A stretch of 17,279 nucleotides of DNA from an uncultured Phycisphaerales bacterium (GTDB lineage: Bacteria > Planctomycetota > Phycisphaerae > Phycisphaerales > SM1A02), in NCBI GenBank assembly GCA_946886375.1, contig CAMPIL010000025.1, positions 1-17,279 on the forward strand, in the 5' to 3' direction. Positions 5,285 to 16,866 of this stretch are shown one piece after another. Numbering within the stretch: position 1 is the stretch's first letter; each line of letters begins with the position of its first letter. The notes beneath the pieces are model-generated. The model was not told the DNA's origin and did not search any database. It saw only the letters and a program-made list of their open reading frames with translations. The position numbers and the translations under genes are program-made.

Positions 5285-5908
5285 ATGAACACCACTGCAT
5301 CGCGATGGATGCTGGCCCTTGGACTCATTTGGAGTTTGATGAACGCAGGCACGGCGTCGGCCCAGGTCTGTTCGGGCCACGGCGTGATGTCCGGCGGAGT
5401 TTGCATCTGCAATGTCGGTTACGTCGGGCCGAATTGCGAGTTCTGCGCGCCCAATTACTACAACTATCCTAATTGCACGTTCTGTCTTGCAAGCACCACG
5501 TGCAGCGGCCACGGGTTTTGCACGGCTACCGGCGGCTGCGTTTGTGCCGTTGGATATGTCGGGCCCAATTGCAGTCAGTGCGCGCCCAACTACTACAACT
5601 ATCCCACCTGCACGTTCTGTCTTGCGAGCACCACCTGCAGCGGCCACGGCACGTGCAACGCATTGGGCGGCTGCAACTGCGCGCCGGGATGGACCGGGCC
5701 GAATTGTTCGATTCCGGTTTGCTTCGGCGACATCAGCGGCGATGGTCAGGTGAATGTGAACGATTTGCTCGCGGTCATCAACAGTTGGGGATCATGCCCG
5801 ACGCCGCCTCCGGCCTGCGCCGCAGACATCGCGCCGATTGGCGGCGACGGCCAGGTCAACGTCAACGACCTGCTGACGGTGATCAACAAGTGGGGGGCAT
5901 GCCTGTAA
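5285..5908 (+). CDS. Secreted protein with EGF-like repeats and two dockerin-like modules
   Basis: The 207-aa protein begins at ATG 5285 with GGAG at 5275-5278; the upstream extension of the frame is not signal-like. Residues 1-27 are a signal peptide with an ASA cleavage site before Gln28. Three EGF-like (laminin/tenascin-style) modules follow: C29-C51, C73-C96 and C118-C141, each CSGHG...GGCxCxxGxxGPNC. They are separated by nearly identical linkers (CAPNYYNYPNCTFCLASTTC and CAPNYYNYPTCTFCLASTTC), giving a 45-residue period. Two dockerin-like repeats close the protein (about 149-171 and 182-206, GDGQVNVNDLLAVINSWGSC type). This predicts a disulfide-rich extracellular protein anchored or docked through its C-terminus. 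No partner is visible in the window. Confidence 0.88.
   Translation: MNTTASRWMLALGLIWSLMNAGTASAQVCSGHGVMSGGVCICNVGYVGPNCEFCAPNYYNYPNCTFCLASTTCSGHGFCTATGGCVCAVGYVGPNCSQCAPNYYNYPTCTFCLASTTCSGHGTCNALGGCNCAPGWTGPNCSIPVCFGDISGDGQVNVNDLLAVINSWGSCPTPPPACAADIAPIGGDGQVNVNDLLTVINKWGACL
5421..5690 (+). repeat. 135-base tandem repeat inside the EGF/dockerin gene
   Basis: Two consecutive units of 135 bases (about 5421-5555 and 5556-5690) are very similar at DNA level, for example tgcgcgcccaa at 5444 and again at 5579. A partial third unit continues with the GWTGPNC segment. The period is an exact multiple of three, so it reads as in-frame duplication of an EGF-plus-linker module. Confidence 0.8.
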
Positions 5909-6032: not shown

Positions 6033-6038
6033 TACACT
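6033..6038 (+). promoter_or_regulatory. TACACT box, predicted leaderless promoter of the DUF454 gene
   Basis: TACACT (TAnnnT) ends six bases before ATG 6045, putting the predicted transcription start at or beside the start codon. The same TACACT-N6-ATG arrangement occurs before the DinB-like gene. Confidence 0.5.
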
Positions 6039-6044
6039 TCGGAG

Positions 6045-6482
6045 ATGAACCGGTTCCGGCGAATGCTGTTGGCGGGTGCGGGAGCGCTGTGCGTCGCCTT
6101 GGGAGCGCTGGGCATTTTCCTGCCGCTGCTGCCCACCACGCCGTTTCTGCTGCTGGCGGCGGTGTGTTTCGCAAAGTCGTCGCCCCGGCTGCTGCACTGG
6201 CTCAACCACAACCGCTGGTTCGGCTCGAACATCAGGAACTATCGCGAAGGCCGCGGCATTCCGATGCGCGAGAAAGCGCTGACTCTGGCGCTCTTGTGGC
6301 TGACCATTGGCGTGACGATCGCGTTCTTCATCTCGCTGATATGGGTAAAGATTGTGCTGCTGATCATTGCTCTGCCGGTGACGGCGCACCTGCTGCGCGT
6401 CAAGACGATGAAACCGGAGCGTGCGCTGCACGCGGAACGAGGCAGCCGTGTGGCGAGGCCCGTGGAATGCCGCAACGAGTGA
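6045..6482 (+). CDS. DUF454 (YbaN) family inner-membrane protein
   Basis: The 145-aa protein has the DUF454 signature: a first membrane segment running into LGIFLPLLPTTPFLLLAAVC (about 22-41), then CFAKSSPRLLHWLNHNRWFG (41-60) and a basic stretch before two more hydrophobic segments (about 79-98 and 100-117). The function of the family is not established. I prefer ATG 6045 (MNRFRRMLL) over TTG 6027 because a TACACT box ends six bases before it, as at other genes here. The GGAG directly touching the ATG is too close to act as a ribosome binding site. The gene converges with the DinB-like gene, only 35 bases away. Confidence 0.88.
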   Translation: MNRFRRMLLAGAGALCVALGALGIFLPLLPTTPFLLLAAVCFAKSSPRLLHWLNHNRWFGSNIRNYREGRGIPMREKALTLALLWLTIGVTIAFFISLIWVKIVLLIIALPVTAHLLRVKTMKPERALHAERGSRVARPVECRNE

Positions 6483-6517
6483 TGGCGCGGGCGAGTGCTC
6501 GCGCATGGGATTGCGGG

Positions 6518-7039
6518 TTATTCCACGACTTGCCGCTTGTACATCATGTAACCGAAATCAAGGTCCTGCAGGACCACGCCGCATTCGCGCAGCATCGCCA
6601 TGACCTGCGCGCGGTGGTGAACTTCGTGCAGCGTCATTTGGGTGAAGATATCCGCGGGGGAGACGGTGATTCGCGTCAACTTCCCTTCGCGTGACTTTGA
6701 GGTGTAATCAAACTCGCGCTCCCAACTTCCCGAAGCATGCGCGGCTTGGACCACCGCGCGGGTGCGAGGCGCCTGTTCTCGCCATGTCGTCTCGATGACG
6801 CCGAACGCAGGAGGTTTTTCGTCCTGTATCGGCCAGGTTTCATAGGGAGGCAGATCGTGTCGCTGAATGCGTTCGATGTAAGCCCATTCCACGATCATCA
6901 TGTGCGTGAGCGTGGTGCCGAAGGTCTTCAGACCAATGGAGAACTCGCGTTGGTAGAGTTCCGGCGAAAGCCCGCGCACGGCGTCAAAGACTCTTTCACG
7001 CGCCTTGGTGAGATAGTCGTAGATTTTCAGTGGCTGCAT
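6518..7039 (-). CDS. DinB/YfiT-like putative metalloenzyme
   Basis: The 173-aa protein has the four-helix DinB-like pattern with the metal-binding His triad: H46 in TTLTHMMIVEW, and H138/H142 in the HxxxH of TLHEVHHRAQV. Members of this superfamily include thiol-dependent transferases and hydrolases; the substrate here is unknown. A longer start at 7054 (MYTAS...) is possible, but that ATG lies between the inverted repeat at 7056-7080 and the TACACT box, and neither start has a Shine-Dalgarno. The TACACT-N6-ATG arrangement favours 7039. MgtC lies upstream on the same strand, 47 bases away. Confidence 0.88.
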   Translation of the reverse strand: MQPLKIYDYLTKARERVFDAVRGLSPELYQREFSIGLKTFGTTLTHMMIVEWAYIERIQRHDLPPYETWPIQDEKPPAFGVIETTWREQAPRTRAVVQAAHASGSWEREFDYTSKSREGKLTRITVSPADIFTQMTLHEVHHRAQVMAMLRECGVVLQDLDFGYMMYKRQVVE

Positions 7040-7045
7040 CGAAGC

Positions 7046-7051
7046 AGTGTA
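7046..7051 (-). promoter_or_regulatory. TACACT box, predicted leaderless promoter of the DinB-like gene
   Basis: On the minus strand TACACT is followed by six bases and then ATG at 7039. It lies immediately downstream of the inverted repeat 7056-7080, which would therefore cover the -35 side of the promoter. Confidence 0.45.
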
Positions 7052-7055
7052 CATT

Positions 7056-7080
7056 GCTGTCAGCGCGCAGGTCTGACAGC
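7056..7080. promoter_or_regulatory. Perfect inverted repeat between mgtC-like and dinB-like genes (possible operator)
   Basis: GCTGTCAG (7056-7063) and CTGACAGC (7073-7080) are perfect 8-base inverted arms around a 9-base centre. The repeat fills most of the gap after the MgtC stop (7087) and sits directly upstream of the TACACT box. There is no T-run on either strand, which argues for an operator rather than a terminator. Confidence 0.5.
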
Positions 7081-7086
7081 GCTACT

Positions 7087-7572
7087 TCAGCGCCGCTTGT
7101 TATTCGCGTTGACGTAGAGCCGCTCGAGGAAGTGCACCAGCACAAGCGTCGTCAGGGCGAGTACCGTCATGGTGGCAGCGATGATGTAGAAGCCCGCGCC
7201 GGCCGCCATGCCAGTGGCGGCGACAACCCAAATGCTGGCCGCGGTAGTCAGGCCTTTCACGCGGCCGCGGTTCTCAATGATCGCCCCAGCGCCAAGGAAT
7301 CCCACGCCGCCGACGATCGCGGCGATGATTCGCAAGGGGTCGCCAAGGCTGGGCCCGGACTGAAATCCGCGCCGGTCCAGCCAGCCGAAGAATTCCATCG
7401 CGATGAGCGTGAAGCCTGCCGCGCCCAAGGCCACCATGATGTGCGTCCGCAATCCGGCGTTGCGGCCGCGGCTCTCACGTTCCCAGCCCACCGCCGCGCC
7501 GATGACCATGGCGACCAGCATTCGCACCACGATTTCTACTGGCGATGTGCTTGTCTCCATGAAGGCGCCCAT
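7087..7572 (-). CDS. MgtC/SapB family membrane protein
   Basis: The 161-aa protein carries the N-terminal MgtC domain: GAAVGWERESRGRNAGLRTH (25-44) with the conserved Glu-Arg, GGVGFLGAGAII (88-99) and VKGLTTAASIWVVAATGMA (105-123), with about four to five membrane segments. It lacks the soluble C-terminal regulatory domain of Salmonella MgtC, so it is the short SapB/YhiD-like form. The precise role of short homologues is uncertain. The start at 7572 is supported by TACGAT ending seven bases upstream; ATG 7560 is an alternative. Confidence 0.9.
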   Translation of the reverse strand: MGAFMETSTSPVEIVVRMLVAMVIGAAVGWERESRGRNAGLRTHIMVALGAAGFTLIAMEFFGWLDRRGFQSGPSLGDPLRIIAAIVGGVGFLGAGAIIENRGRVKGLTTAASIWVVAATGMAAGAGFYIIAATMTVLALTTLVLVHFLERLYVNANNKRR

Positions 7573-7579
7573 TCACCCA

Positions 7580-7585
7580 ATCGTA
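7580..7585 (-). promoter_or_regulatory. TACGAT box, predicted leaderless promoter of the MgtC-like gene
   Basis: On the minus strand TACGAT is followed by seven bases and ATG 7572, with no Shine-Dalgarno of usual strength between. Confidence 0.45.
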
Positions 7586-7674
7586 CGGACGCCGCACCGC
7601 CGCATGACCGCAGCGTCTGTGAATGCCCGTCAGTTCGGGTGAAATTCGGAGCCCGTCCCATCGCAGGGCCGCGC

Positions 7675-7690
7675 GCCGCGCCGGCGCGGC
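7675..7690. repeat. 16-base GC palindrome upstream of the nitroreductase gene
   Basis: gccgcgcc/ggcgcggc is a perfect palindrome 25 bases before ATG 7716 and just upstream of the TAGAGT box, in the gap between the divergent MgtC-like and nitroreductase genes. It could be an operator, but in GC-rich DNA it may be chance. Confidence 0.4.
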
Positions 7691-7697
7691 TTCATGT

Positions 7698-7703
7698 TAG
7701 AGT
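7698..7703 (+). promoter_or_regulatory. TGtTAGAGT extended -10-like box of the nitroreductase gene
   Basis: TAGAGT with an upstream TGn (7695-7697) ends 12 bases before ATG 7716, so a leader of only about five or six bases is predicted. No Shine-Dalgarno is present. Confidence 0.4.
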
Positions 7704-7715
7704 CAACGCCCACGC

Positions 7716-8387
7716 ATGCCGGAGCCGACCTATATCCCGTATCGTCCGATCGCGCCTGATCAGGGGGCCGATCCGCTGCGTGCATCGCGTGAATTCTTCG
7801 AGCGGATGAACAGCCGCCGCAGCGTGCGCATGTTTTCTGATCGCGATGTGCCGCGCGAAGTGATCGAGAACCTCATCCGGGCTGCAGGCACTGCGCCCAG
7901 TGGCGCGAACAAGCAGCCATGGCGCTTCATCGCGGTGCGCGATCCGGTCATCAAGAAGGAAATCCGCCTCGCCGCGGAAGAGGAGGAGCGGGAGTTCTAC
8001 CAGCGGCGGGCAAATCCCGACTGGCTGCGCGATTTGCAGGCCATCGGCACCGATGAGCACAAGCCATTCCTTGAGATCGCTCCGTGGCTGATTGCAGTTT
8101 TCAAACTCGTGCGCGATGACCAGATGCAGAATGAATCCGATCAGGTGTATTACGTGAACGAATCGGTTGGAATAGCGGTGGGCTTGCTGCTTGCCGCGGC
8201 GCACCACGCGGGCCTGGCCACGCTGACGCACACGCCAAGCCCAATGAAATTCCTGGCAACAATCCTGCGGCGGCCGCCCTACGAGCGGCCGTACCTGCTG
8301 ATTCCCGTGGGATATCCTGCGCCGGACTGCGTGGTGCCTGATCTTGATCGCAAGCCGCTGGATCAGATCATGGTTGTTGATCGGTAA
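7716..8387 (+). CDS. Nitroreductase-fold flavoenzyme, iodotyrosine-deiodinase-like
   Basis: The 223-aa protein has the FMN-binding nitroreductase fold: RRSVRMFSDRDVP (34-46), AAGTAPSGANKQPWRF (56-71), NESVGIAVGLLLAAAHHAGL (148-167) and IPVGYPAPDCVVPDLDRKPL (196-215). The overall order and wording match iodotyrosine deiodinase, which reductively removes iodine from halotyrosines using FMN. The substrate-lid residues of the human enzyme (Glu157, Tyr161, Lys182) have counterparts at E91, Y95 and K116, with identical spacings of 4 and 21 residues. I infer a halotyrosine or related haloaromatic dehalogenase. A generic nitroreductase or other IYD-family activity remains possible. It stands alone, divergent from the MgtC-like gene and convergent with the next. 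Confidence 0.92.
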   Translation: MPEPTYIPYRPIAPDQGADPLRASREFFERMNSRRSVRMFSDRDVPREVIENLIRAAGTAPSGANKQPWRFIAVRDPVIKKEIRLAAEEEEREFYQRRANPDWLRDLQAIGTDEHKPFLEIAPWLIAVFKLVRDDQMQNESDQVYYVNESVGIAVGLLLAAAHHAGLATLTHTPSPMKFLATILRRPPYERPYLLIPVGYPAPDCVVPDLDRKPLDQIMVVDR

Positions 8388-8444
8388 ACTGGATCTCGCG
8401 CAGCGTGATGACACGCCGGCCCGCGCTGCAAAGGGCAATTGGTG

Positions 8445-9056
8445 TCAGGCGCCTTCGACCAGTTCAAAGAACACGCCATCGGATGTCCGGAGTTTTCCCT
8501 GGCGGGCCAGTTCGTCCCAAACCTGCCGTGGAAATTCGCGCGGAGCCATGATCGCGGCGACCTGCGACTTCTTGCCGCCTGACATGGGGTTGCCCACGCG
8601 TCCAAGTTTGGATTCATCATCCAGCCGCGTCAATTTCAGCCGTTTGCGGAAGGCTTTCATCGCGCGCTTGAGGTTGTCCGATGACAGGTCATCTGGCGGG
8701 GCCTGGGGCACGGGTGTCGCTGCGGCGACTGCTTCAGCGGCACCAGCAATGGCCGGCGAGCCGGGTGAGGGTTCAGCGGCAGACGATTGCTTTTGCTTCA
8801 AACCCGCGCTGAGTTCATTCGTCAGGCGTGCCAGTCCTTTGATGTCCTTTTTTGCAACGATCTCTGCCACGCGCGGATCATCCGCCGCGATGCGCGACAG
8901 CAGCGCCTTGGCCTTCTCCCACAGTTTCACAGGCTTGTTGGCCTCAGCGAGGTAGATCTCCGAGACGATTTCGCTCAGCCGCTGCAGGGAAATGGTGTCA
9001 AAGTGCTCGTAGTACCTGCGGACGATTCCCTGCTGATATGCGGATCGATCTGCCAT
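8445..9056 (-). CDS. Conserved-looking hypothetical protein, two domains joined by an Ala/Pro linker
   Basis: The 203-aa protein is not recognised. Residues 1-88 look all-helical and amphipathic (RYYEHFDTISLQRLSEIVSE, then KLWEKAKALLSRI). Residues 89-122 are a low-complexity Ala/Pro/Ser linker. Residues 125-203 form a second, basic, helical domain (NLKRAMKAFRKRLKLTRLDD) ending in a helix plus strand pattern (FPRQVWDELARQGKLRTSDG, then VFFELVEGA) that could be a small winged-helix-like unit, though this is only a resemblance. There is no signal peptide or membrane segment, so it is probably cytoplasmic. The start is supported by TATGAT five bases upstream. Confidence 0.8.
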   Translation of the reverse strand: MADRSAYQQGIVRRYYEHFDTISLQRLSEIVSEIYLAEANKPVKLWEKAKALLSRIAADDPRVAEIVAKKDIKGLARLTNELSAGLKQKQSSAAEPSPGSPAIAGAAEAVAAATPVPQAPPDDLSSDNLKRAMKAFRKRLKLTRLDDESKLGRVGNPMSGGKKSQVAAIMAPREFPRQVWDELARQGKLRTSDGVFFELVEGA

Positions 9057-9061
9057 GACAC

Positions 9062-9067
9062 ATCATA
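9062..9067 (-). promoter_or_regulatory. TATGAT box, predicted leaderless promoter of the 203-aa gene
   Basis: On the minus strand TATGAT (five of six matches to TATAAT) is followed by gtgtc and ATG 9056. No ribosome binding site fits in five bases. Confidence 0.5.
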
Positions 9068-9189
9068 CGCAGCCAACCGCCACGAAGCCCGGTCTCCAAG
9101 CGAGCGCGGTCGCGAATCATCGCTGCATCATGTCGGGCACCTCGGTTTGCTCGCTGTCGTCCTTGCGCGTCTTGACGTGAATCTTCTAC

Positions 9190-9216
9190 TCTGGCAATGA
9201 AGCTTCTGGCAATGAA
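9190..9216 (+). repeat. 15-base-period tandem duplication at a small ORF start
   Basis: tctggcaatgaa occurs at 9190-9201 and at 9205-9216. Each copy contains an in-frame ATG of the 61-codon frame, giving MKLLAMKL. Confidence 0.7.
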
Positions 9217-9382
9217 ACTGGTCCGGCTCAAACGCAGACATCCGATGAACCTCACGCTGGCGACGCCGCGCTGCCCAGAATGCGGATGTGTGATCGACGC
9301 GGCTGTTGAATTGCTGTTGCGCGGTGGCGCGACGGTTTCGGCGGAGCCAGACCCCAACAAAAGCGCAAAGCAACCTCGCTGA
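9197..9382 (+). CDS. Possible small protein with a single CPxCGC knuckle
   Basis: A 61-codon frame lies between two divergent genes and ends four bases before the convergent PAC2 stop. The centre reads LATPRCPECGCVIDAAVELL (about 21-40), like one half of a zinc ribbon, with an amphipathic helix after it and a polar tail. Starts at 9197, 9212 and 9245 are possible. A TACTCT box ends four bases before 9197, roughly in line with the leaderless pattern of neighbours. The first 15 bases are duplicated, which duplicates the start codon. It may be spurious: it is short and there is no ribosome binding site. Confidence 0.4.
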   Translation: MKLLAMKLVRLKRRHPMNLTLATPRCPECGCVIDAAVELLLRGGATVSAEPDPNKSAKQPR

Positions 9383-9386
9383 CCCA

Positions 9387-10400
9387 TCAATCCGCTTTGC
9401 GGAACAGGTCCAGGAAGCGATCCTCGTATTGCTTGAAGACGCCCAGCCGATCCAGTTCGCGCTTCAGGTGAAAGGCTCTGTCGCGGTTTTCATGGGCGCT
9501 TTCGAACATGGCATCGATGCGGCGGCGCGTGGCGTAATCGAGTTCAGGCCCCTTGTTCACCGCAGGACTGGATTCCGGTTTGGCCGTTTCGTCCGTTTCG
9601 CCGTTGCCTTCATCATCATCATCCTCATCGGCGGCCGCAAACTCCGGCACGGTGAAGCTCTCGCCGCCGGCTTCGGCTTGCTCGCGGGCGGCCTGCTCGA
9701 GTTTCTCCAGCAACTGGATGAGTCCCTTCTCCACCATCTTGGCCTGCTGGTCCAGTTCCGCAAAGTCGATGTCCACTCCGACCATCGTGGTGAAAACTTC
9801 CAGCGCGGCATGCGAAGCCTTGGGATTGGGAACGCCCGCGGCGAAGTAGGGCAGTTCGCCAAGCAGACAAATGCCCGGCATGCTGCGCTCCACGCCCGCA
9901 GCCAGCAGAACGCCGTTGAGCCCGCTAATCTGCCCCTCCTTGAGGATTTCAACTTCCAGCGTCTTGAGTTGCTCAAGCAGTTGGGGATCGGTGGAGACGC
10001 CGAAGACGCGCGGCTGATCGGTTGGATGGAGTTGCGAGGCCATCGCAGCGAAGGTGCAGATATTCCGCACGCCGCGCTGCTGGGCGTAATCCAGTATGCG
10101 ATGGCACAAGGCGTACCCGCCGACGGTCGGCTGCGCCTCGCCGATGAACACCAGCAGATCGCGCGGCGAGTCTGGCAGGCGCAACTCAAAGAACATGTTG
10201 CGCGGCAGGCGGCCGGCGCGGGCCAGTCCGTTGCGCACATCGATGTGCGGCACGTCGAACATCTCGCGCGAAGGCAGCTCATGCACCAGTTTCGCGCCGG
10301 CTTTCACCACGAGGTAGCCTGCGGCTCCGACGGCGACATTGCCCATGCCGGGCCACGCCGCGACAAGCCAGGGATCGCGAAGCAGGGTCACATCAGCCAT
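9387..10400 (-). CDS. PAC2 family protein
   Basis: The 337-aa protein belongs to the PAC2 family, related to archaeal/eukaryotic proteasome assembly chaperone 2. Visible hallmarks are WLVAAWPGMGNVAVGAAGYL (11-30), a LVFIGEAQP segment followed by ILDYAQQRGVRNICTFAAMA (about 102-121), SGLNGVLLAA and the Pro-rich GELPYFAAGVPNPKASHAAL region. A very acidic linker (ADEDDDDEGNGETDE) lies between the PAC2 core and a C-terminal charged helical tail. The bacterial role is not established. A longer frame starts at 10421, but TAGAAT ends eight bases before ATG 10400 and would lie inside that longer frame, so I prefer 10400. It is divergent from the carbonic-anhydrase-like gene. Confidence 0.88.
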   Translation of the reverse strand: MADVTLLRDPWLVAAWPGMGNVAVGAAGYLVVKAGAKLVHELPSREMFDVPHIDVRNGLARAGRLPRNMFFELRLPDSPRDLLVFIGEAQPTVGGYALCHRILDYAQQRGVRNICTFAAMASQLHPTDQPRVFGVSTDPQLLEQLKTLEVEILKEGQISGLNGVLLAAGVERSMPGICLLGELPYFAAGVPNPKASHAALEVFTTMVGVDIDFAELDQQAKMVEKGLIQLLEKLEQAAREQAEAGGESFTVPEFAAADEDDDDEGNGETDETAKPESSPAVNKGPELDYATRRRIDAMFESAHENRDRAFHLKRELDRLGVFKQYEDRFLDLFRKAD

Positions 10401-10408
10401 TTCCTGCG

Positions 10409-10414
10409 ATTCTA
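10409..10414 (-). promoter_or_regulatory. TAGAAT box, predicted leaderless promoter of the PAC2 gene
   Basis: On the minus strand TAGAAT (five of six matches to TATAAT) is followed by eight bases and ATG 10400. Confidence 0.5.
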
Positions 10415-10498
10415 TGCGCATGCAGGCGCAGGGGCAGATGGCAGGCGATTCACCGAGCCGATCCTGAGTCGGCGGTTGCGCCAGTTTCGTTTTGCCGG

Positions 10499-10504
10499 TA
10501 CATT
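10499..10504 (+). promoter_or_regulatory. TACATT box, predicted leaderless promoter of the carbonic-anhydrase-like gene
   Basis: TACATT ends eight bases before ATG 10513, and TTGCGC lies exactly 17 bases upstream (10476-10481) as a possible weak -35 element. Confidence 0.5.
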
Positions 10505-10512
10505 GCCGATGG

Positions 10513-10962
10513 ATGAATTACCAAAGCACTTTGCCCTACGACGCCCAGCGCATTCACGCGGCGGCGATGTACTGCAGCGACGGCCGCGTGGGCGAGCACT
10601 TTGACGACTTCCTGCAGAACGCCTTGAAACTGCCGCGCTACGACCGCGTGGCTCTTCCCGGCGGACCGGCCTGCCTGGCCGGGCACACCGAGGCGCATGT
10701 TGCCGAACAGGGCGTCGTGGATGAACTCAACTTCCTGGTGGAAACCCACAGGCTGGAGCGAATCGTGCTCATCGCCCACGCAGGCTGCGCGTTCTACTCG
10801 GCGCGCCTGAACTTGCCGCATGAATACCTCGAGTCCCAGCAGAAGATCGACTTGGTCAAGGCGGCAGGGTTCATCCGCAGAATTACCCGCATCAGCCGAA
10901 TCGATGCGTTTTTCGCGCGGCCGGACCACAATCGCGTGCTGTTTGAGCCGGTAGTCCTGTAA
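10513..10962 (+). CDS. Small beta-carbonic-anhydrase-like protein
   Basis: The 149-aa protein is shorter than typical beta-carbonic anhydrases (about 170-230 aa) but shows the core zinc-site pattern: YCSDGR (C21, D23, R25), equivalent to the CxDSR motif, and IAHAGC (H89, C92), equivalent to HxxC. Those enzymes interconvert CO2 and bicarbonate using a Cys-His-Cys zinc site and an Asp-Arg dyad; all five residues appear present. The central segment RVALPGGPACLAG and the helix before LERIVLIAHAG also fit the fold. Whether it is an active anhydrase or a divergent relative cannot be decided here. ATG 10513 is preferred over TTG 10492 because of the TACATT box. Confidence 0.75.
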   Translation: MNYQSTLPYDAQRIHAAAMYCSDGRVGEHFDDFLQNALKLPRYDRVALPGGPACLAGHTEAHVAEQGVVDELNFLVETHRLERIVLIAHAGCAFYSARLNLPHEYLESQQKIDLVKAAGFIRRITRISRIDAFFARPDHNRVLFEPVVL

Positions 10963-11047
10963 CGTGCAGCCGCGGCTTGTTGAACGAACTTGCACGGCGT
11001 GAAGAGCGTGTAGCATTGGCCCGAGTCATCCATTCCTGCCCAACCTC

Positions 11048-11197
11048 ATGAGCGATTTTTGAATTCAGCTACGCGAAGTTCCGCCCCATCGTGCAGGACG
11101 CGCTGGATCACGGCTACACCTGCCACAGGTTCGATGAAGCCCTCTCGCGCGTAGTCGCAAAGCGGTTCTACCTGCGGCACACGTGGACATTTCCGCC
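11048..11197 (+). pseudogene. Truncated, twice-frameshifted polysaccharide-deacetylase-like remnant
   Basis: From ATG 11048 the frame reads MSDF then hits TGA because a run of five T (11056-11060) has one base too many. Skipping one T gives a continuous protein-like reading, EFSYAKFRPIVQDALDHGY and then THRFDEAL-like residues up to FYLRH at 11180. There a second shift is needed: adding one base between 11180 and 11181 restores LRH-D-VDIS. The FxYxxFRxxxxxALxxGY...LRHDVDIS pattern is typical of the N-terminus of a polysaccharide-deacetylase-like family. After VDISA the similarity stops, so most of the catalytic domain is missing. I read it as a decayed gene start. Confidence 0.55.
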
Positions 11198-11216
11198 ATC
11201 AATCCTCCCGGACCCA

Positions 11217-11247
11217 TGAACCCTCTCCCTCGATCGGAGAGGGTTCA
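11217..11247. terminator. 12-base-pair perfect stem-loop, candidate terminator
   Basis: tgaaccctctcc (11217-11228) and ggagagggttca (11236-11247) are perfect inverted arms around a 7-base loop. It lies 33 bases beyond the stop of the minus-strand lipoprotein gene and after the pseudogene. No T-run follows on either strand, so it may be a Rho-independent terminator of the tail-less kind or simply an intergenic stem-loop. Confidence 0.5.
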
Positions 11248-11279
11248 CCAACGCACTCAGAACGGCGTTCGGGCACAGT

Positions 11280-11906
11280 TCAGTCGCGATTGGACGGCTG
11301 ACTGATGACATCATTGTTATTCGCGCTGCCGAGATATCGCTCGCGCGCTTGTCGATTAATCGCCAACATGCGGTTGATGACGTTCTGACTCACGCCATGA
11401 TCGAGCAGGTACTGGCGCTGCTCGGCGTTGAGATCGAAGATCTGGCCGGTCGCTTCAAGCCGATTAATCATCTGCTGATCGTTCAGTCCAGCCTGCTTCA
11501 TCGCGACGACTTCATCCAGCGTGACAAAGCCATCGTTGTTGATGTCAGCGGTGCGTGCGCTGCGGGCCTCCTCGGGCGTGGCCGGGTTGGTCTGGGCCTG
11601 GTTCACTGCCTGTTGGGCTTCCTGGCGGACTTCTTCGTCGTCGTCTTCAAACCAATCGGTCTTGGCGCCGATGAGGTAGCCGCCGCCCGCGCCCAGCAAG
11701 CCGCCAATGAGTGCGCCGAGCAGCCGGTTTTCCTTGGCGAGAATGGCGCCGATTCCCGCGCCTGCCGCCCCTCCGATCACTGTGGATTGCTCGGTTCTTG
11801 AACCGGGCAGGTCCTCGCAGCCGCCCATGAATGGTGCGCCGCACAGGCCGGCTATTGCGGCCAGCACCAACGCACACCGTACGAAATTTTGCTTTGAAAG
11901 TGTCAT
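11280..11906 (-). CDS. Glycine-zipper lipoprotein with a single EF-hand
   Basis: The 208-aa protein starts at ATG 11906, nine bases after AGGAG; the frame extends upstream to 11942 without a ribosome binding site. Residues 1-30 look like an export signal ending in FMGGC (Cys30), an imperfect lipobox. Residues 44-80 are a glycine-zipper hairpin (IGGAAGAGIGAILA and LLGALIGGLLGAGGGYLIGA) of the kind found in envelope lipoproteins. An acidic helix follows, then one canonical EF-hand loop, DINNDGFVTLDE (121-132), with all calcium ligands in place. The C-terminal third is helical, with a 'LNDQQMINRLEATGQ' pattern and 'YLLDHGVSQNVINRMLAI'. An envelope, calcium-responsive role is inferred only. Confidence 0.85.
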   Translation of the reverse strand: MTLSKQNFVRCALVLAAIAGLCGAPFMGGCEDLPGSRTEQSTVIGGAAGAGIGAILAKENRLLGALIGGLLGAGGGYLIGAKTDWFEDDDEEVRQEAQQAVNQAQTNPATPEEARSARTADINNDGFVTLDEVVAMKQAGLNDQQMINRLEATGQIFDLNAEQRQYLLDHGVSQNVINRMLAINRQARERYLGSANNNDVISQPSNRD

Positions 11907-11947
11907 GAATTGTCGCTCCTGTGCCGTGTGTTTGCCTTCCATGTGAC

Positions 11948-11953
11948 GCTATA
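11948..11953 (-). promoter_or_regulatory. Candidate -10 box of the glycine-zipper lipoprotein gene
   Basis: On the minus strand TATAGC, 41 bases before ATG 11906, would give a leader of about 35 bases containing AGGAG. No clear -35 box. Confidence 0.3.
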
Positions 11954-12020
11954 CCGCAGGGCTTGCCGCACCCGATCGGAACGATGCCTTATTCGACCGG
12001 CACATCCGTTGAAAACCCGG

Positions 12021-12026
12021 TATAAA
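12021..12026 (+). promoter_or_regulatory. TATAAA box, predicted leaderless promoter of purE
   Basis: TATAAA (followed by T) ends seven bases before ATG 12034; transcription is predicted to start at or one base before the A of the start codon. There is no Shine-Dalgarno. Confidence 0.6.
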
Positions 12027-12033
12027 TCAGCGC

Positions 12034-12549
12034 ATGGCAAAGCGATCTGAACGGTCTGAACGGTCTGAACGTCCTGTCGTAGGCATCATCATGGGGAGCA
12101 AGTCGGATTGGGAGACCATGCAGCACGCCGACCAGACGCTGTCGCGTTTCGGCGTGCCGCATGAGTGCAGGGTGCTTTCCGCGCATCGCACGCCCCACGA
12201 AGCAGCCGAGTACGCCGAAACCGCCGAAGCGCGTGGATTGAAAGTCATCATCGCGGCGGCGGGGGGCGCGGCCCATCTCGCAGGCGTCATCGCCGCATCC
12301 ACGATCATCCCCGTGCTGGCATGCCCGATGCAGACCTCATCGTTGGGCGGGCTGGATTCGCTGCTCTCCATGGTGCAGATGCCCGGCGGAATCCCCGTGG
12401 GCACGCTGGCCATCGGCAAGGCGGGTGCGACCAACGCTGCGCTGCTGGCGGTGGCGATCCTGGCGCTGGAAGACGATGCGCTGCGAACGAAACTGCACGA
12501 TTTCCGCAAGGAGCAGGCGCAGAAAGTCCTTGCGGAATCGCTGCCCTGA
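12034..12549 (+). CDS. purE: 5-(carboxyamino)imidazole ribonucleotide mutase (PurE, class I)
   Basis: The 171-aa protein has all class I PurE landmarks: [13 protein letters not shown] (17-29), [11 protein letters not shown] (48-58, with the catalytic His at H51), [15 protein letters not shown] (74-88) and CPMQ...[20 protein letters not shown] (97-124). It converts N5-CAIR to CAIR in purine synthesis, normally together with PurK, which is not in this window. The N-terminus has an extra tripled SER motif (residues 5-13) encoded by a 9-base tandem repeat. The stop is five bases before the EamA transporter start, so the two are probably one transcript. Confidence 0.96.
12043..12069 (+). repeat. 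Three tandem 9-base units at the purE 5' end
   Basis: cgatctgaa (12043-12051) is followed by two copies of cggtctgaa (12052-12060, 12061-12069), encoding RSE-RSE-RSE. The period is in frame, so copy-number changes would not disrupt the gene. Confidence 0.8.
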
Positions 12550-12554
12550 CCTGA

Positions 12555-13487
12555 ATGCGGCAACTGTCCGGCGCCATACTCGTCGTCATCGCGGCAATCG
12601 GCTTCGGCTTCATGGGGCTGTTCGGGTCCTGGGCGATGAATGCCGGCGTCAGTGTCGAAATGATGCTGTTCCTGCGCTTCGCCATCGCCGGCGCGATCAT
12701 GTCGATCATCATGGTGGGGCGCGGCGAACGCTGGCCGCGCGGCCGCATCCTGCTCGGGTTGATCGGCATGGGGGCAGCGCTCTACGTCGGCGAGGCCATG
12801 TTCTTCTTTCACGCAACGCGGCACATTCCCGTCGGGCTGGTCTCGCTGCTGCTGTACATTTATCCCGTCATCGTCACGTTGTACGCATGGCTGTTTCTCC
12901 ACCAGCCTCTGCGCGGCGGCAGGCTGCTCGCGCTCATTCTCGCGCTGGCCGGGTTGGCGCTGACCATCGGGCCAACGATCTTGAATGGCAGCGGCGACGG
13001 CGTCGCCGGGGGCAACCCTGTTGTGGGCGTGCTGCTTGGGCTTGGCTGCTGCGTGACGTACTCGGTTTACATTCTGGTCGGCGGGCCGATGACCCGCCGT
13101 GCGGGCGCGATCCCCGGCTCGACGATTGTGATTCTTTCCGCGGCGAGCGTTTTGGGGGCGATCGCGCTGATCCGTGGGGATGAACTGCCGCGCGATGGGC
13201 ACGCATGGCTGGGCATCGTGCTCTTGGCGCTGGCCTCCACCGTCATCGCCATCACGGCGGTGCTGGTGGGATTGGAGCGCATCGGCCCGGTGCAGACTTC
13301 CATGCTGTCAACGCTGGAGCCGGTGGTGACTGTCCTCGTGGGGGCGGGGTTGATGGGACAGCGGCTCACCTTGCCGCAAATGGCCGGCGGCGCGTTGATC
13401 GTTCTGGCGGCGGTGATCATCGCACGCACGGTCACGGCTTCGCCGCAATCGCCGCCCAGCGATGCGGATGTGCTGGAGATTCACTGA
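12555..13487 (+). CDS. EamA/DMT-superfamily transporter
   Basis: The 310-aa integral membrane protein has about ten hydrophobic segments arranged as two EamA repeats, the usual drug/metabolite transporter layout. The first repeat runs from GAILVVIAAIGFGFMGLFG to LALAGLALTIGP, the second from NPVVGVLLGLGCCVTYSVYI to GGALIVLAAVIIA. Characteristic segments are LVSLLLYIYPVIVTLYAWLF (end of repeat 1) and GPVQTSMLSTLEPVVTVLVG (end of repeat 2). The substrate is not predictable. It starts five bases after the purE stop, so translation may be coupled; a role in nucleotide or base export is a guess from context only. Confidence 0.92.
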   Translation: MRQLSGAILVVIAAIGFGFMGLFGSWAMNAGVSVEMMLFLRFAIAGAIMSIIMVGRGERWPRGRILLGLIGMGAALYVGEAMFFFHATRHIPVGLVSLLLYIYPVIVTLYAWLFLHQPLRGGRLLALILALAGLALTIGPTILNGSGDGVAGGNPVVGVLLGLGCCVTYSVYILVGGPMTRRAGAIPGSTIVILSAASVLGAIALIRGDELPRDGHAWLGIVLLALASTVIAITAVLVGLERIGPVQTSMLSTLEPVVTVLVGAGLMGQRLTLPQMAGGALIVLAAVIIARTVTASPQSPPSDADVLEIH

Positions 13488-13521
13488 TGCTGGCATCGGA
13501 TGAGTGAAGCGATTGGAAAAG

Positions 13522-13575
13522 TGAAGCCCACGGACTGCTTCCGAGGGCTTCAACGGACTGCTTCCGAGGGCTTCA
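13522..13575. terminator. Duplicated stem-loop between convergent genes
   Basis: tgaagccc (13522-13529) can pair with gggcttca at 13545-13552 or with the second copy at 13568-13575. The second copy arises because a 23-base unit (13530-13552) is perfectly duplicated in tandem (13553-13575). The element lies between eamA (+, ends 13487) and the small minus-strand gene, where a bidirectional terminator would be expected. Confidence 0.5.
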
Positions 13576-13637
13576 TAAGGGGGAATGCGTGCGGTTGAGG
13601 TTCTGGAATCAGTCCTCGTTTTCCGAGATGCACTGCT

Positions 13638-13745
13638 TCACTGCGTTGTTCCACTCGCCGCGGTGGTTACATAGCACGGGTCTGACCACGCCGTCTGGCA
13701 AAGGATCGCGATGCTGAACAGGACGATGATGTGGGCGTAACGCAT
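13638..13745 (-). CDS. Very small secreted peptide, possibly frameshifted
   Basis: ATG 13745 is preceded by AGGAG at seven bases, one of the best ribosome binding sites in the window. The 35-aa product MRYAHIIVLFSIAILCQTAW is a convincing signal peptide, then SDPCYVTTAASGTTQ and a stop. A -1 frame change at the GCG GCG codons would instead continue as EWNNAVKQCISENED and stop at 13609, giving a 45-aa precursor with two mature cysteines that looks more protein-like than the in-frame tail. So this is either a true short peptide or a gene with a one-base lesion. It lies 38 bases downstream of the beta-helix gene on the same strand. No family is recognised. Confidence 0.55.
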   Translation of the reverse strand: MRYAHIIVLFSIAILCQTAWSDPCYVTTAASGTTQ

Positions 13746-13783
13746 GTTCTTCTCCTGAAAAAAACGGGCTTGGAAAGAGAGAT

Positions 13784-15784
13784 TCACTGTCCCCAGGACA
13801 GAATGACCTTGAGCAGGTCTTGAAAATTGACCAGGCCGTCGCCCGCAGGATAAGGGGCGATGTCGGCAGGACAAGGCACGGCGCATGGGCCCCACGAATT
13901 GATCACCGAAAGCAGATCGCTGACGTTGACGACGCCATCCATGTTGATGTCCACCGGCGGCTGAAACTCGAAGGCGCCCATGTCCACCGCCGGCAAGCCG
14001 GTCGTTCCGGTGTTCCCCGAATTGACCGTCTCTGGATCATTGCGAAAACGCTTCTGGTTCCAAAGATCAAGCGGCAGCAGTTCCTTGAGGATTCCATCAT
14101 CGTCCAGATCGAACGTATCGCGAGGAAGTTCGGTGGTATCGCCCGCGTCAATGCAGAGCGAGCCTGGCTGCAATCGAAAGTCACCAACCAACGCATCCAC
14201 GAACACTGGATCGCTGCTGATATTGCCTGTTCCGGGCCAGCCCCCGCCGATGCAGGAGTAGGAGACGTTCGCGTTGCCGGCGAGATCGCCGTTCGAATTG
14301 CCATGGATCACGCTGTTGACAATCGTGGCGTTGCCGCCGGCTGAGATGCCTCCGGTTGTGGTGAGCGAAGTGTTGTTGGTTATGGTCGTGTTGATGAACG
14401 AGGCGCGCTGGTTAGGATCGATTCGGACCGCTCCACCGGGATCGCGTGATGAGTTGTCGGTGATGAGACAGTTCACAAAGCTACTCGCCCCGGCGACGTG
14501 AACCGCGCCTCCGCCGTCAAACCACGCTGAGTTGTCGCGCATTTCGCAATTGATGAAGTTGCCAGAGCCGTACACTGCTCCGCCTGAATGGGCCTTGACG
14601 ACGTTATCAGCGAATGTGCATTGAATGAAGGTAGACGCGGACGCTTTCACACCTCCGCCTTCAAACGTCGCGAAACTATCTTGGAAGCGGCATCTTGTAA
14701 AACGCCCACTTGCCCATGCGGCGCCGCCCTGCACCGCAACGTTTCCAACGAAAATGCAATCCTCGGCGATGGGGTTGCCGACAATGGCCCCGCCGACATC
14801 ACCTACGTTATTTACAAAATTGCACCGATAGAGAGAGAGCACACTGTTGATTCCAAATTGCCGAATCGCACCGCCCAAGCCAGGGACATCCGCCAGATTG
14901 GAGATGAAATCAGAGTCACTGATGGTGCATGTGCTGGGAGGTTTCGTTCCTACTGACTGCAGTATGGCAATGGCTCCGCCTCCAACAGAGAGTGTCGACT
15001 TGTTTGATTGGAAATTGCAGCGGTCAATAACCACCGCGCTGCTCCGGATTTCCAAAGCTCCAGCCTGGCGCCCTAGATTCTGGAAGAATCTTGAATCGTG
15101 AAGCGTGACGGATGTGTCGTTCACGGATGCGCCGCCGCCTGAATACGCCGAGCACTGTATGAACGTGCAATGGTCAATCAGCAAATTTGCATCATGCGCC
15201 AACAATCCGCCTCCCTTCAGTTCGTCAAAGCCCATGACCGCGTTGCCGGCTGTGATTGTCAGTCCTTCCAGAGTAATCAGCGCGCTGCTGTTGATCGTGA
15301 CCACGTGCAGGCTGTTGTCGCCGTAGTTCTGAAATGATCCTGCGGGTCCATCATTGCCCAGCAGATCGCCGCTGAAGATGGTCGGGAACTTGTTCCAATC
15401 CCGTTCATCTGGATTCTGGCTGATCAATCCCGCATACCCGCCGCGCAGGGCGATTCCCGCAGACACGGTGAATGTCGCGTTGCGATCACCGGCAGTCGGC
15501 GTGCCGGGCATTCCCGCTTCGCCTTGATCGGGCTTGTACATTCCCTGAGCGGTGCGGATTTCTGTGACGGCGTTCACAGGATCAGCCGCGTACGCCAATG
15601 CGTTCTGCAGATATCGAAACGCTGATGGCCACGAGGAGCCATCCCCGCCCGGCGGCGCATCGTCATCGACATACAGATTGATCGCCTCCCTTTGGTCGAT
15701 TCCCTCAAAGACCATCGCTTGGGCGCATGCTGAAGCAATGAGCAAAAATCCTGTCATGGAAGGAACGCGGTCCGCAAGGCTCAT
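13784..15784 (-). CDS. Secreted right-handed beta-helix protein with choice-of-anchor Q-like region and dockerin-like modules
   Basis: The 666-aa protein starts at ATG 15784 with GGAG five bases upstream. An export signal covers about residues 1-23 (MTGFLLIASACAQA). NLYVDDDAPPGGDGSSWPSA (about 36-55) is the usual opening of planctomycete secreted beta-helix proteins. From about 160 to 545 short repeats of the GGGxxxxxxxxxxIxxCxFxxNxA type form a parallel beta-helix like that of pectate lyases. SLCIDAGDTTELP...VDMGAFEFQ (about 550-608) matches the choice-of-anchor Q pattern. Residues 611-666 contain two dockerin-like units (DINMDGVVNVSDLLSVINSW and AGDGLVNFQDLLKVILSW). No enzymatic motif was identified, so polysaccharide binding or lysis is unproven. 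The small peptide gene follows 38 bases downstream. Confidence 0.9.
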   Translation of the reverse strand: MSLADRVPSMTGFLLIASACAQAMVFEGIDQREAINLYVDDDAPPGGDGSSWPSAFRYLQNALAYAADPVNAVTEIRTAQGMYKPDQGEAGMPGTPTAGDRNATFTVSAGIALRGGYAGLISQNPDERDWNKFPTIFSGDLLGNDGPAGSFQNYGDNSLHVVTINSSALITLEGLTITAGNAVMGFDELKGGGLLAHDANLLIDHCTFIQCSAYSGGGASVNDTSVTLHDSRFFQNLGRQAGALEIRSSAVVIDRCNFQSNKSTLSVGGGAIAILQSVGTKPPSTCTISDSDFISNLADVPGLGGAIRQFGINSVLSLYRCNFVNNVGDVGGAIVGNPIAEDCIFVGNVAVQGGAAWASGRFTRCRFQDSFATFEGGGVKASASTFIQCTFADNVVKAHSGGAVYGSGNFINCEMRDNSAWFDGGGAVHVAGASSFVNCLITDNSSRDPGGAVRIDPNQRASFINTTITNNTSLTTTGGISAGGNATIVNSVIHGNSNGDLAGNANVSYSCIGGGWPGTGNISSDPVFVDALVGDFRLQPGSLCIDAGDTTELPRDTFDLDDDGILKELLPLDLWNQKRFRNDPETVNSGNTGTTGLPAVDMGAFEFQPPVDINMDGVVNVSDLLSVINSWGPCAVPCPADIAPYPAGDGLVNFQDLLKVILSWGQ

Positions 15785-15880
15785 AATAACTCCATAGCAG
15801 GCTCAGCCATTGCCATGCAGGCGCAGCCTAAACAGGGCGCCAAGATCGTCCATAGGAGTAATGCCGTAATTGAGCTCTCG

Positions 15881-16792
15881 CTATCGCTTGCCCACGGCTG
15901 AACCCACTTCGTCGGCGAACTTGGCGGCGGCATTCGCGACTGATTCATTCCAGCGCGCATCGTTGGGTGTAAATGCGTACATCACGGAGCGGCTGGCGGT
16001 GACGAGCGCACCGGCGCCATCGGAGTTGAAACATGGCAGCACGTCTTCAACTCCGCCGCCCTGCGCGCCGTAACCCGGCACGAGAAAGATCTGCTGCGGC
16101 ATGATGCGGCGAAGTTTCATCACGTCTTCTGACTTTGTCGCGCCGACCACCGCGCCCAGCGTGCTGTACCCGCGCGAGCCAACGTATCTGGACCCGATTT
16201 GCGCGATCAAATCTCCCACGGCCTGCGCGACGGTCCGGCCATCGCGCAGTACGAGATTCTGAATCGCATCGCCGCCCGGATTGGACGTGCGCACCAGCGC
16301 GAACGCGCCATGGCGTTCGTGCTTCAGGAACGGTTCAATGCCATCGCTCCCCAGATAGGAATTGATCGTGAGCCAATCCGGCGTTGCGTGAGTCGACTGT
16401 TTGACGGTTGGTTGAAACGCGGCCGCGGCATAATGGTCCGCGGAAATGCCGATATCGCCACGCTTGGCGTCAAGAATGACCTGGAGGTCTGCGTGCCGGC
16501 CCGCACTGGCCATCAGTTGCTCCAATGCGCTGACACCCACAGAACCGTACCGTTCAAAGCACGCGGATTGGAACTTGATGCACGGCACGTACGGAATGAC
16601 CGCCTCAATCAGTTGCTCGCAGAACGCGCGAATCGCGCTCACGATGGAGGCGGCAGAGTCATCGTTCGGCCGCAGCACGTGGGGCAGTTTTTCGACCACA
16701 GGATCGATCCCCACGCACACTGGGGCACGCATGGAGTCAATCGCGGCGAGCAGGCGGTCGGCAACATGGGCGGGCGGCGCGGCAGGAGTCAT
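15881..16792 (-). CDS. pyrF: Orotidine-5'-phosphate decarboxylase, type 2
   Basis: The 303-aa enzyme decarboxylates OMP to UMP, the last step of de novo UMP synthesis. Motifs: VCVGIDP (25-31), CIKFQSACFERYG (71-83) and the catalytic DAKRGDI (108-114), with later TSNPG and the phosphate-binding LVPGYGAQGGG. The length and the GID/DAKRGDI wording fit the longer PyrF type 2 subfamily. The frame is open to 16861, but the preferred start is ATG 16792 because an extended -10 (TGCTACATT) ends eight bases before it and the upstream extension is not similar to PyrF. The gene is divergent from the DUF971 gene. Confidence 0.95.
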   Translation of the reverse strand: MTPAAPPAHVADRLLAAIDSMRAPVCVGIDPVVEKLPHVLRPNDDSAASIVSAIRAFCEQLIEAVIPYVPCIKFQSACFERYGSVGVSALEQLMASAGRHADLQVILDAKRGDIGISADHYAAAAFQPTVKQSTHATPDWLTINSYLGSDGIEPFLKHERHGAFALVRTSNPGGDAIQNLVLRDGRTVAQAVGDLIAQIGSRYVGSRGYSTLGAVVGATKSEDVMKLRRIMPQQIFLVPGYGAQGGGVEDVLPCFNSDGAGALVTASRSVMYAFTPNDARWNESVANAAAKFADEVGSAVGKR

Positions 16793-16800
16793 GAGGCACA

Positions 16801-16806
16801 AATGTA
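16801..16806 (-). promoter_or_regulatory. TGcTACATT extended -10, predicted leaderless promoter of pyrF
   Basis: On the minus strand TACATT with an upstream TGC is followed by eight bases and ATG 16792. The same box and spacing precede the carbonic-anhydrase-like gene. Confidence 0.55.
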
Positions 16807-16860
16807 GCAGAGACCGGCACGCGCCGGACGCAACGGCCTGCGGAAGCGACGAGCACTTCA

Positions 16861-16866
16861 TAGAAT
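16861..16866 (+). promoter_or_regulatory. TAGAAT box of the DUF971 gene
   Basis: TAGAAT (five of six matches to TATAAT) is followed by six bases and then ATC 16873, the point where DUF971-like protein similarity seems to begin. There is no ATG at that point. Confidence 0.45.

What the first reader, a model, noticed from the sequence alone, without database searches (positions are those of the whole stretch)
6033..16866. Leaderless-mRNA signature (TAnnnT ending 5-8 bases before ATG) at most non-secreted genes
Seen directly: TACACT-N6-ATG (DUF454, 6045), TACACT-N6-ATG (DinB, 7039 minus), TACGAT-N7-ATG (MgtC, 7572 minus), TATGAT-N5-ATG (203-aa unknown, 9056 minus), TAGAAT-N8-ATG (PAC2, 10400 minus), TACATT-N8-ATG (carbonic-anhydrase-like, 10513), TATAAA-N7-ATG (purE, 12034), TACATT-N8-ATG (pyrF, 16792 minus). 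None has a usable Shine-Dalgarno. In GC-rich DNA a TAnnnT at such fixed spacing should be rare by chance. A TAnnnT -10-like box abutting the start codon is the known mark of leaderless transcripts in groups such as Deinococcus. Inference: this lineage uses leaderless initiation widely for housekeeping genes.
Basis: partly seen in the sequence, partly recalled or inferred. Interest (0 to 1): 0.75.

Follow-up and report, generated by a model that had tools for sequence, protein, structure and literature searches.

The report
Leaderless gene starts in Phycisphaerae bacteria
In this planctomycete DNA many genes begin at the very spot where the RNA copy should begin, so they would be translated without the usual ribosome landing site; the same signature recurs in related genomes and is seldom seen at genes for exported proteins.

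Summary
Seven of the eight listed genes carry a strict TAnnnT 5-8 bases before an ATG; purE's TATAAA does not fit. Of 620 window ATGs 12 have the box at 5-9, and 7 of these open genes. The window's own genome is not held, so I tested relatives. In four samples from relatives TAnnnT at spacing 6-9 ranks first of 640 blind patterns upstream of genes lacking a Shine-Dalgarno (SD) 4-mer (85 seen, 11.3 expected); it also ranks first in Deinococcus radiodurans, 465th in E. coli. Boxed genes rarely have SD (8/97 against 344/857) and tightly packed downstream genes rarely have the box (4/193), as a promoter predicts. The anti-SD is intact, so both modes coexist. The rate is about 10% of genes, not 'most'; the window is locally dense. 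Over 14 planctomycete samples signal-peptide-like first genes have the box in 4/183 cases against 71/682 cytosolic-like ones, and SD in 52% against 27%; a small independent set shows the SD difference but no clear box deficit. Leaderless initiation is known; Phycisphaerae as users is a new member. No RNA 5' ends were mapped.

The parts
6033..6038 (+). TACACT -10-like box, 6 bases before ATG of DUF454 gene
   Evidence: sequence
6045..6482 (+). DUF454 membrane protein gene (PF04304)
   Evidence: Pfam E 1.8e-39; motif-blind caller picked 6063 (3 of 4 tables)
7046..7051 (-). TACACT box, 6 bases before ATG of DinB-family gene
6518..7039 (-). DinB-family gene (PF05163)
   Evidence: Pfam; motif-blind start caller picks 7039 (4 of 4 tables)
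7580..7585 (-). TACGAT box, 7 bases before ATG of MgtC gene
7087..7572 (-). MgtC-family gene (PF02308)
   Evidence: Pfam; start 7572 picked with 3 of 4 codon tables
9062..9067 (-). TATGAT box, 5 bases before ATG of 203-aa gene
8445..9056 (-). 203-aa protein of unknown function
   Evidence: 9 of 17 homologues start at the same column; no Pfam match
10409..10414 (-). TAGAAT box, 8 bases before ATG of PAC2 gene; lies inside the 344-aa database version of the ORF
9387..10400 (-). PAC2-family gene (PF09754)
   Evidence: Pfam; 19 of 21 homologues start here; motif-blind caller picked 10421
10499..10504 (+). TACATT box, 8 bases before ATG of carbonic-anhydrase-like gene (divergent from PAC2)
10513..10962 (+). 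Pro_CA_2 gene (PF20393)
   Evidence: Pfam; motif-blind start caller picks 10513 (4 of 4 tables)
12021..12026 (+). TATAAA, 7 bases before ATG of purE: -10-like but not TAnnnT
12034..12549 (+). purE (PF00731)
   Evidence: Pfam E 9.8e-63; motif-blind caller picked 12091 or 12118
16801..16806 (-). TACATT box, 8 bases before ATG of pyrF; lies inside the 326-aa database version of the ORF
15881..16792 (-). pyrF (PF00215)
   Evidence: Pfam; start supported by homologues, and by the motif-blind caller
2336..3157 (+). contrast: TSP3 protein gene, exported by reading of its N-terminus, with SD AGGAGG and no box
5285..5908 (+). contrast: EGF/dockerin protein gene, exported by reading of its N-terminus, with SD GGAG and no box
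   Evidence: motif-blind caller picked 5309 or no gene
11280..11906 (-). contrast: lipoprotein-like Gly-zipper gene with SD AGGAG and no box
   Evidence: motif-blind caller picked 11828
13784..15784 (-). contrast: 666-aa protein gene, exported by reading of its N-terminus, with SD GGAG and no box
   Evidence: motif-blind caller picked 15715

Best explanation
TAnnnT is the -10 element of a housekeeping-sigma promoter placed so that transcription starts at, or 1-3 bases before, the A of the start codon. The mRNA has no usable 5' leader and no SD, and is started from its 5'-terminal AUG. In Phycisphaerae this mode serves roughly a tenth of genes, mostly the first gene of a unit, beside ordinary SD initiation by ribosomes with an intact anti-SD. 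Shown: the box, its fixed spacing, the lack of SD at boxed genes, its rarity inside apparent operons, and its recurrence in relatives. Inferred: sigma recognition, the transcription start, and 5'-AUG initiation.
For: Window: 7 of 17 ATG gene starts boxed against 5 of 603 other ATGs. Relatives, motif-blind start calls: G001 50/518, G018 34/290, G256 7/70, G005 6/76 boxed at 5-9, against 0.3-1.5% before internal ATGs. TAnnnT is rank 1 of 640 blind patterns in non-SD genes there and in D. radiodurans, rank 465 in E. coli. Single-candidate-start genes: 19/192 boxed, 16 of them at spacing 6-8. Spacing 6-9 fits the -10 to +1 distance (established knowledge). Tight downstream genes 4/193, divergent genes 38/303, co-directional with gap over 40 49/408; boxed genes rarely have SD, 8/97 against 344/857. 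Logo of 89 boxes chosen as TAnnnT: middle C-a-(a/c), no -35 signal. Anti-SD CACCTCCTTTCT in 6 of 6 16S ends read. Whole-genome counts: 104 of 120 genomes have more spacing-6 than spacing-18 matches.
Against: No RNA data. The window's organism could not be tested genome-wide; nearest held relatives are 62-64% identical in PAC2. The state is not conserved gene by gene: PAC2 starts are boxed in 7 of 107 rows, window and duplicates included, while 44 of 87 distinct PAC2 hits have SD. Six of 14 planctomycete samples show no significant excess over internal ATGs, and two that do (G009, G031) do not exceed their positional control. The start caller agrees with annotation at only 59 of 74 E. coli and 80 of 105 D. 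radiodurans starts, so rates are approximate. The EM motif search failed to find the box.
Confidence: 0.88

Rival explanations
1. The A/T-containing box is a translation signal (for example an unstructured or S1-binding site) in a normal leader, not a promoter.
For: Nakagawa et al. 2017 (PMC5397173, passages seen) say that AT bias upstream of non-SD starts in several phyla could be leaderless mRNA and/or S1 binding.
Against: A translation signal should also precede genes inside operons, but 4 of 193 tight co-directional genes have the box, against 87 of 711 genes that are divergent or more than 40 bp downstream. The core is a -10 hexamer at a fixed distance, not a diffuse U-rich tract.
Confidence: 0.06
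2. The boxes are -10 elements of short-leader promoters, with start sites a few bases upstream and 1-8 nt leaders, so the genes are near-leaderless.
For: Spacings 7-9 together are commoner than 6 (49 against 35 of 89 boxes; 5 at spacing 5), leaving 1-3 nt if the start lies 6 bases after the box.
Against: The commonest single spacing, 6, places +1 on the A of ATG. The difference is minor, since leaders this short cannot hold an SD.
Confidence: 0.25
3. Chance or reader selection: an A/T-poor genome read until boxes were found.
Confidence: 0.01

Closest known systems
-10-motif adjacent to ORFs, Deinococcus-Thermus (Zhong et al. 2025, PMC12340547; outline and sections 7 and 11 read)
   Same: TANNNT with nearly invariant T1, A2, T6; commonest form TACACT; about 6-7 bp before the ORF; coexists with a GGAG motif. 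My scan of D. radiodurans plasmid MP1 finds the same box (17 of 113 annotated starts typed in).
   Different: Another phylum; strict-box rate about 10% here against nearly one-third of D. radiodurans genes by MEME in that paper. They report no pathway bias; here exported proteins appear depleted. They show reporter and RNA-seq data; here none.
TA-led leaderless genes of Zheng et al. 2011 (PMC3160421; section 7 read, passages elsewhere)
   Same: TANNNT about 12 bp upstream of the start codon, with a weak middle in high-GC groups.
   Different: Their list of groups with leaderless genes (207 of 953 genomes) does not include Planctomycetes.
Mycobacterial leaderless transcripts (Cortes et al. 2013, PMC3898074; search listing only)
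   Same: High-GC bacterium with many leaderless transcripts beside SD genes (partly recalled).
   Different: Actinobacteria; experimentally mapped.

Membership tests
Bacterial leaderless (TA-led) genes | -10-like TANNNT core with T1, A2, T6 | tested here: met
   7 window genes; blind rank 1 of 640 in non-SD genes of four relative samples
Bacterial leaderless (TA-led) genes | fixed distance, about 6-9 bases between box and start codon | tested here: met
   sharp peaks at 6-9; window spacings 5-8
Bacterial leaderless (TA-led) genes | no Shine-Dalgarno at boxed genes | tested here: met
   0 of 7 in window; 8 of 97 against 344 of 857 in relatives
Bacterial leaderless (TA-led) genes | found at first genes of transcription units, not inside operons | tested here: met
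   4 of 193 tight genes against 38/303 and 49/408; units inferred from spacing only
Bacterial leaderless (TA-led) genes | genome-wide excess over composition in the organism itself | not testable with these tools
   no genome held for the window; tested in relatives instead
Bacterial leaderless (TA-led) genes | primary RNA 5' end at the start codon | not testable with these tools
   needs 5'-end RNA sequencing
Bacterial leaderless (TA-led) genes | box drives transcription (promoter activity) | not testable with these tools
   needs reporter assays
SD-led initiation (coexisting mode) | intact anti-SD and SD upstream of genes | tested here: met
   CCTCC in 6 of 6 16S ends read; SD 4-mer at 25-50% of genes in 13 of 14 planctomycete samples, 13% in G008

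The most novel reading that the evidence does not exclude
In these planctomycetes the two initiation modes are sorted by protein destination. Genes for signal-peptide proteins are started from leadered SD mRNAs and largely avoid leaderless promoters, while cytosolic and multi-spanning membrane proteins use leaderless starts freely. If true, the 5' end of the mRNA is linked to export, through targeting, expression level or the sigma factors used.
Probability: 0.45. Interest if true: 0.65.

Novelty: new member of a known kind. Interest (0 to 1): 0.5.

Why it matters
It extends TA-led leaderless initiation to a class of planctomycetes; in the papers my searches listed I saw it only as a possibility for the phylum, from one genome. 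It also has a practical side: database versions of two of three boxed proteins checked are extended upstream (PAC2 344 instead of 337 aa, pyrF 326 instead of 303 aa), hiding promoters inside coding sequence. The export contrast, if confirmed, would make the old question of what selects leaderless against leadered mRNAs testable.

Tried and rejected
A hand-written EM motif search drove its mixing weight to 0.91-0.95, at or near the ceiling, in 7 of 8 runs and found SD-like or diffuse motifs, not a clean box; I replaced it with the exhaustive 640-pattern scan. The first genome scan with one PAC2 sequence found nothing; an alignment worked. Gene-level conservation outside PAC2 and purE could not be judged: no held orthologue-like hits for DUF454, DinB, MgtC, the 203-aa protein or pyrF, and 2 for the carbonic-anhydrase-like gene, neither boxed. 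purE orthologues: 6 of 30 had a boxed plausible start, with start positions uncertain. Rfam found nothing in the window at gathering scores. Rows dropped before counts: genes under 90 aa (80 aa) and, outside, genes whose start lay within 80 bases of a stretch end. The first export test used 8 of the 14 planctomycete samples, picked by me; one search repeats it on all 14. In one search the title groups are mine: L051, titled only Planctomycetota, sits among the 35 Planctomycetia loci; L057 (titled Planctomycetales) and L047 (titled Bacteroidales) sit among the 17 unassigned; L001 was left out. Considered and rejected: S1-type translation signal, and chance.
Full report
WHAT THE WINDOW IS. Homologues of the PAC2 and pyrF proteins that carry an organism name in the lists shown are Phycisphaerales, Phycisphaerae or Planctomycetes/Planctomycetota. 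No whole genome is held for the window. The nearest held genomes are about 62-64% identical in PAC2 (G001, which holds locus L001 titled Phycisphaerales OFTM33, and G002). Eighteen genes with starts curated by me were examined.

THE OBSERVATION. Seven of the eight listed genes have a strict TAnnnT 5-8 bases before an ATG; purE has TATAAA and fits only loosely. Of 620 ATG trinucleotides on both strands 12 have the box at 5-9, and 7 of these open genes. A start caller that never looks upstream recovers five of the seven with three different relatives' codon tables and four with the window's own table. Homologue alignments support the starts of PAC2 (19 of 21 rows), pyrF (9 of 17 within one residue, 4 more with Met at that column) and the 203-aa protein (9 of 17 at the same column). 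The database versions of PAC2 and pyrF are 7 and 23 residues longer (P0001 344 aa, P0121 326 aa; the 203-aa protein is not extended), which puts the box inside the coding sequence.

GENOME-WIDE TEST IN RELATIVES. I fetched about 2.4 Mb from relatives and called genes with a codon-score caller blind to upstream sequence. It agrees with annotation at 59 of 74 E. coli and 80 of 105 D. radiodurans starts. TAnnnT at 5-9 precedes 50 of 518 genes in G001, 34 of 290 in G018, 7 of 70 in G256 and 6 of 76 in G005, against 0.3-1.5% before internal ATGs. D. radiodurans MP1 gives 16 of 114; E. coli gives 4 of 74, no excess. Of 14 planctomycete samples 8 exceed the internal-ATG control at P < 0.05; six do not (G008, G360, G288, G381, G129, G146). 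G009 and G031, among the eight, do not exceed their positional control. A cross-trained weight-matrix estimate gives 6.7-10.4% of genes in the four main samples and 8.9-15.1% of first genes, against shifted-control means of 0.1-0.5% (single shifts up to 2.5%). Genes with only one possible start give 19 of 192, with 16 of the 19 boxes at spacing 6-8.

BLIND PATTERN SCAN. Among 640 three-base patterns tested at 11 offsets, TAnnnT at 6-9 ranks first for 602 genes without an SD 4-mer in the four main samples (85 seen, 11.3 expected), first in G001 and in G018 alone, first in D. radiodurans and 465th in E. coli. Over all 954 genes the top seven patterns are SD-like and TAnnnT ranks eighth. In 89 boxes selected as TAnnnT the middle is C-a-(a/c), with some preference for C four bases and G two bases upstream and nothing resembling a -35 element.

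WHOLE-GENOME COUNTS. TACAMT-N6-ATG against the same pattern with N18 (same codon phase) in 120 genomes of G001's class: 3086 against 1844, higher in 104 genomes, equal in 1, lower in 15; 33 genomes individually at P < 0.01. In 59 genomes of the class of G008 (TBK1r; a Pirellulales-type planctomycete by recall): 1466 against 1105, higher in 45, equal in 2, lower in 12; 7 at P < 0.01, three of them with very high ratios (G441, G430, G449). The mode is therefore patchy in both classes and commoner in the first. Loci grouped by record title agree: Phycisphaer* 22 of 223; Planctomycetia 11 of 347, below its positional control though above internal ATGs at P = 0.03; unassigned 4 of 135.

PROMOTER OR TRANSLATION SIGNAL. 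The box is rare at tightly packed co-directional genes (4 of 193), which often have SD (108 of 193). It is present at divergent (38 of 303) and widely spaced co-directional genes (49 of 408). A promoter predicts this; a ribosome-binding signal does not. Boxed genes rarely have SD (8 of 97 against 344 of 857; among first genes 7 of 87 against 214 of 624). The anti-SD is intact in the six 16S ends read (G001, G005, G006, G007, G008, G009), so SD and leaderless starts coexist. A spacing of 6 puts the expected +1 on the A of ATG (established promoter geometry).

EXPORT. In the window all four genes I class as exported have SD and no box, while 7 of the other 14 are boxed and none of those seven has SD. 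For three of the four exported genes my start, chosen to keep the signal peptide whole, lies upstream of the motif-blind caller's. In all 14 planctomycete samples, among first genes, signal-peptide-like proteins have the box in 4 of 183 and SD in 96; cytosolic-like ones have the box in 71 of 682 and SD in 185; multi-spanning membrane proteins are boxed in 29 of 267 and other N-terminally hydrophobic ones in 3 of 55 (box P = 1.6e-4, SD P = 3e-10; stratified by genome z = -3.5). In G001 alone the box P is 0.055; without G001 and G018 it is 1 of 90 against 23 of 326, P = 0.04. The eight samples tried first gave 4 of 139 against 65 of 529. An independent set of 18 Phycisphaer* loci gives 2 of 24 against 10 of 89 for the box (not a clear difference) and 14 of 24 against 21 of 89 for SD. 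A coarser split by N-terminal hydrophobicity gave 17 of 213 against 70 of 498, P = 0.024. In D. radiodurans MP1 the numbers are too small (2 of 13 against 11 of 45), and in E. coli SD does not rise with the signal peptide (4 of 11 against 20 of 45). The signal-peptide rule is home-made. Better start calling for exported proteins would raise both signals, so it cannot explain a lower box rate.

CONSERVATION. The state changes gene by gene: PAC2 starts are boxed in the window and in G001, but in only 7 of 107 rows examined, window and duplicates included; 44 of 87 distinct PAC2 hits have SD.

LITERATURE. Zheng et al. 2011 list the groups with leaderless genes and Planctomycetes are not among them (PMC3160421, section 7). 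Nakagawa et al. 2017 include one planctomycete and suggest leaderless mRNA and/or S1 (PMC5397173, passages). Zhong et al. 2025 describe the Deinococcus-Thermus -10-motif and also scanned bacteria at large, but their per-phylum figure is not visible to me (PMC12340547, sections 7 and 11). Searches joining leaderless with Planctomycetes, Phycisphaer, Planctomycet or Planctomycetota, or for start-site maps in planctomycetes, listed 20 of 46, 1 of 1, 20 of 55, 20 of 71, 3 of 3, 2 of 2 and 1 of 1 papers; by title none listed is a start-site map of a planctomycete. Unlisted papers and most subscription papers were not seen. Two searches on leaderless mRNA and exported proteins listed 2 papers and 0 papers; in one of the two (PMC10502375, passages) no such contrast appears, the other was not opened.

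VERDICT. It is a known kind in a class where I found no earlier experimental description; the sorting by export is the part most worth testing.

Noticed in passing
window 2336, 5285, 11906, 15784 (starts): All four exported-type genes of the window have an SD at usable spacing and no box, whereas none of the seven boxed genes has one; 14 relative samples show a similar contrast.
   Followed up: partly
L053, L061, L069, L070, L072, L073, L074: Seven Verrucomicrobiota-titled loci show almost no SD (4% against 8% control) and 6 of 84 boxed starts; a small sample.
   Followed up: no
G001 and G018 samples: Four of 149 divergent gene pairs have a box on both sides, with only 20-78 bp between the start codons; in the 20-bp case the two boxes overlap. 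2.4 such pairs are expected if sides are independent.
   Followed up: partly
window 9387-10421 and 15881-16861: Database proteins for PAC2 and pyrF start upstream of the conserved start, so the putative promoter falls inside the annotated coding sequence.
   Followed up: yes
window 303-2180: A 625-aa protein with an HNH_3 match and two AP2 stretches, a homing-endonuclease-like make-up.
   Followed up: no
window 10400-10513: PAC2 and the carbonic-anhydrase-like gene diverge from a 112-bp gap that holds a box facing each way.
   Followed up: no
G441, G430, G449: Three genomes of G008's class show a very strong spacing-6 excess (44 against 3, 51 against 6, 26 against 4), so the mode recurs outside G001's class.
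   Followed up: no
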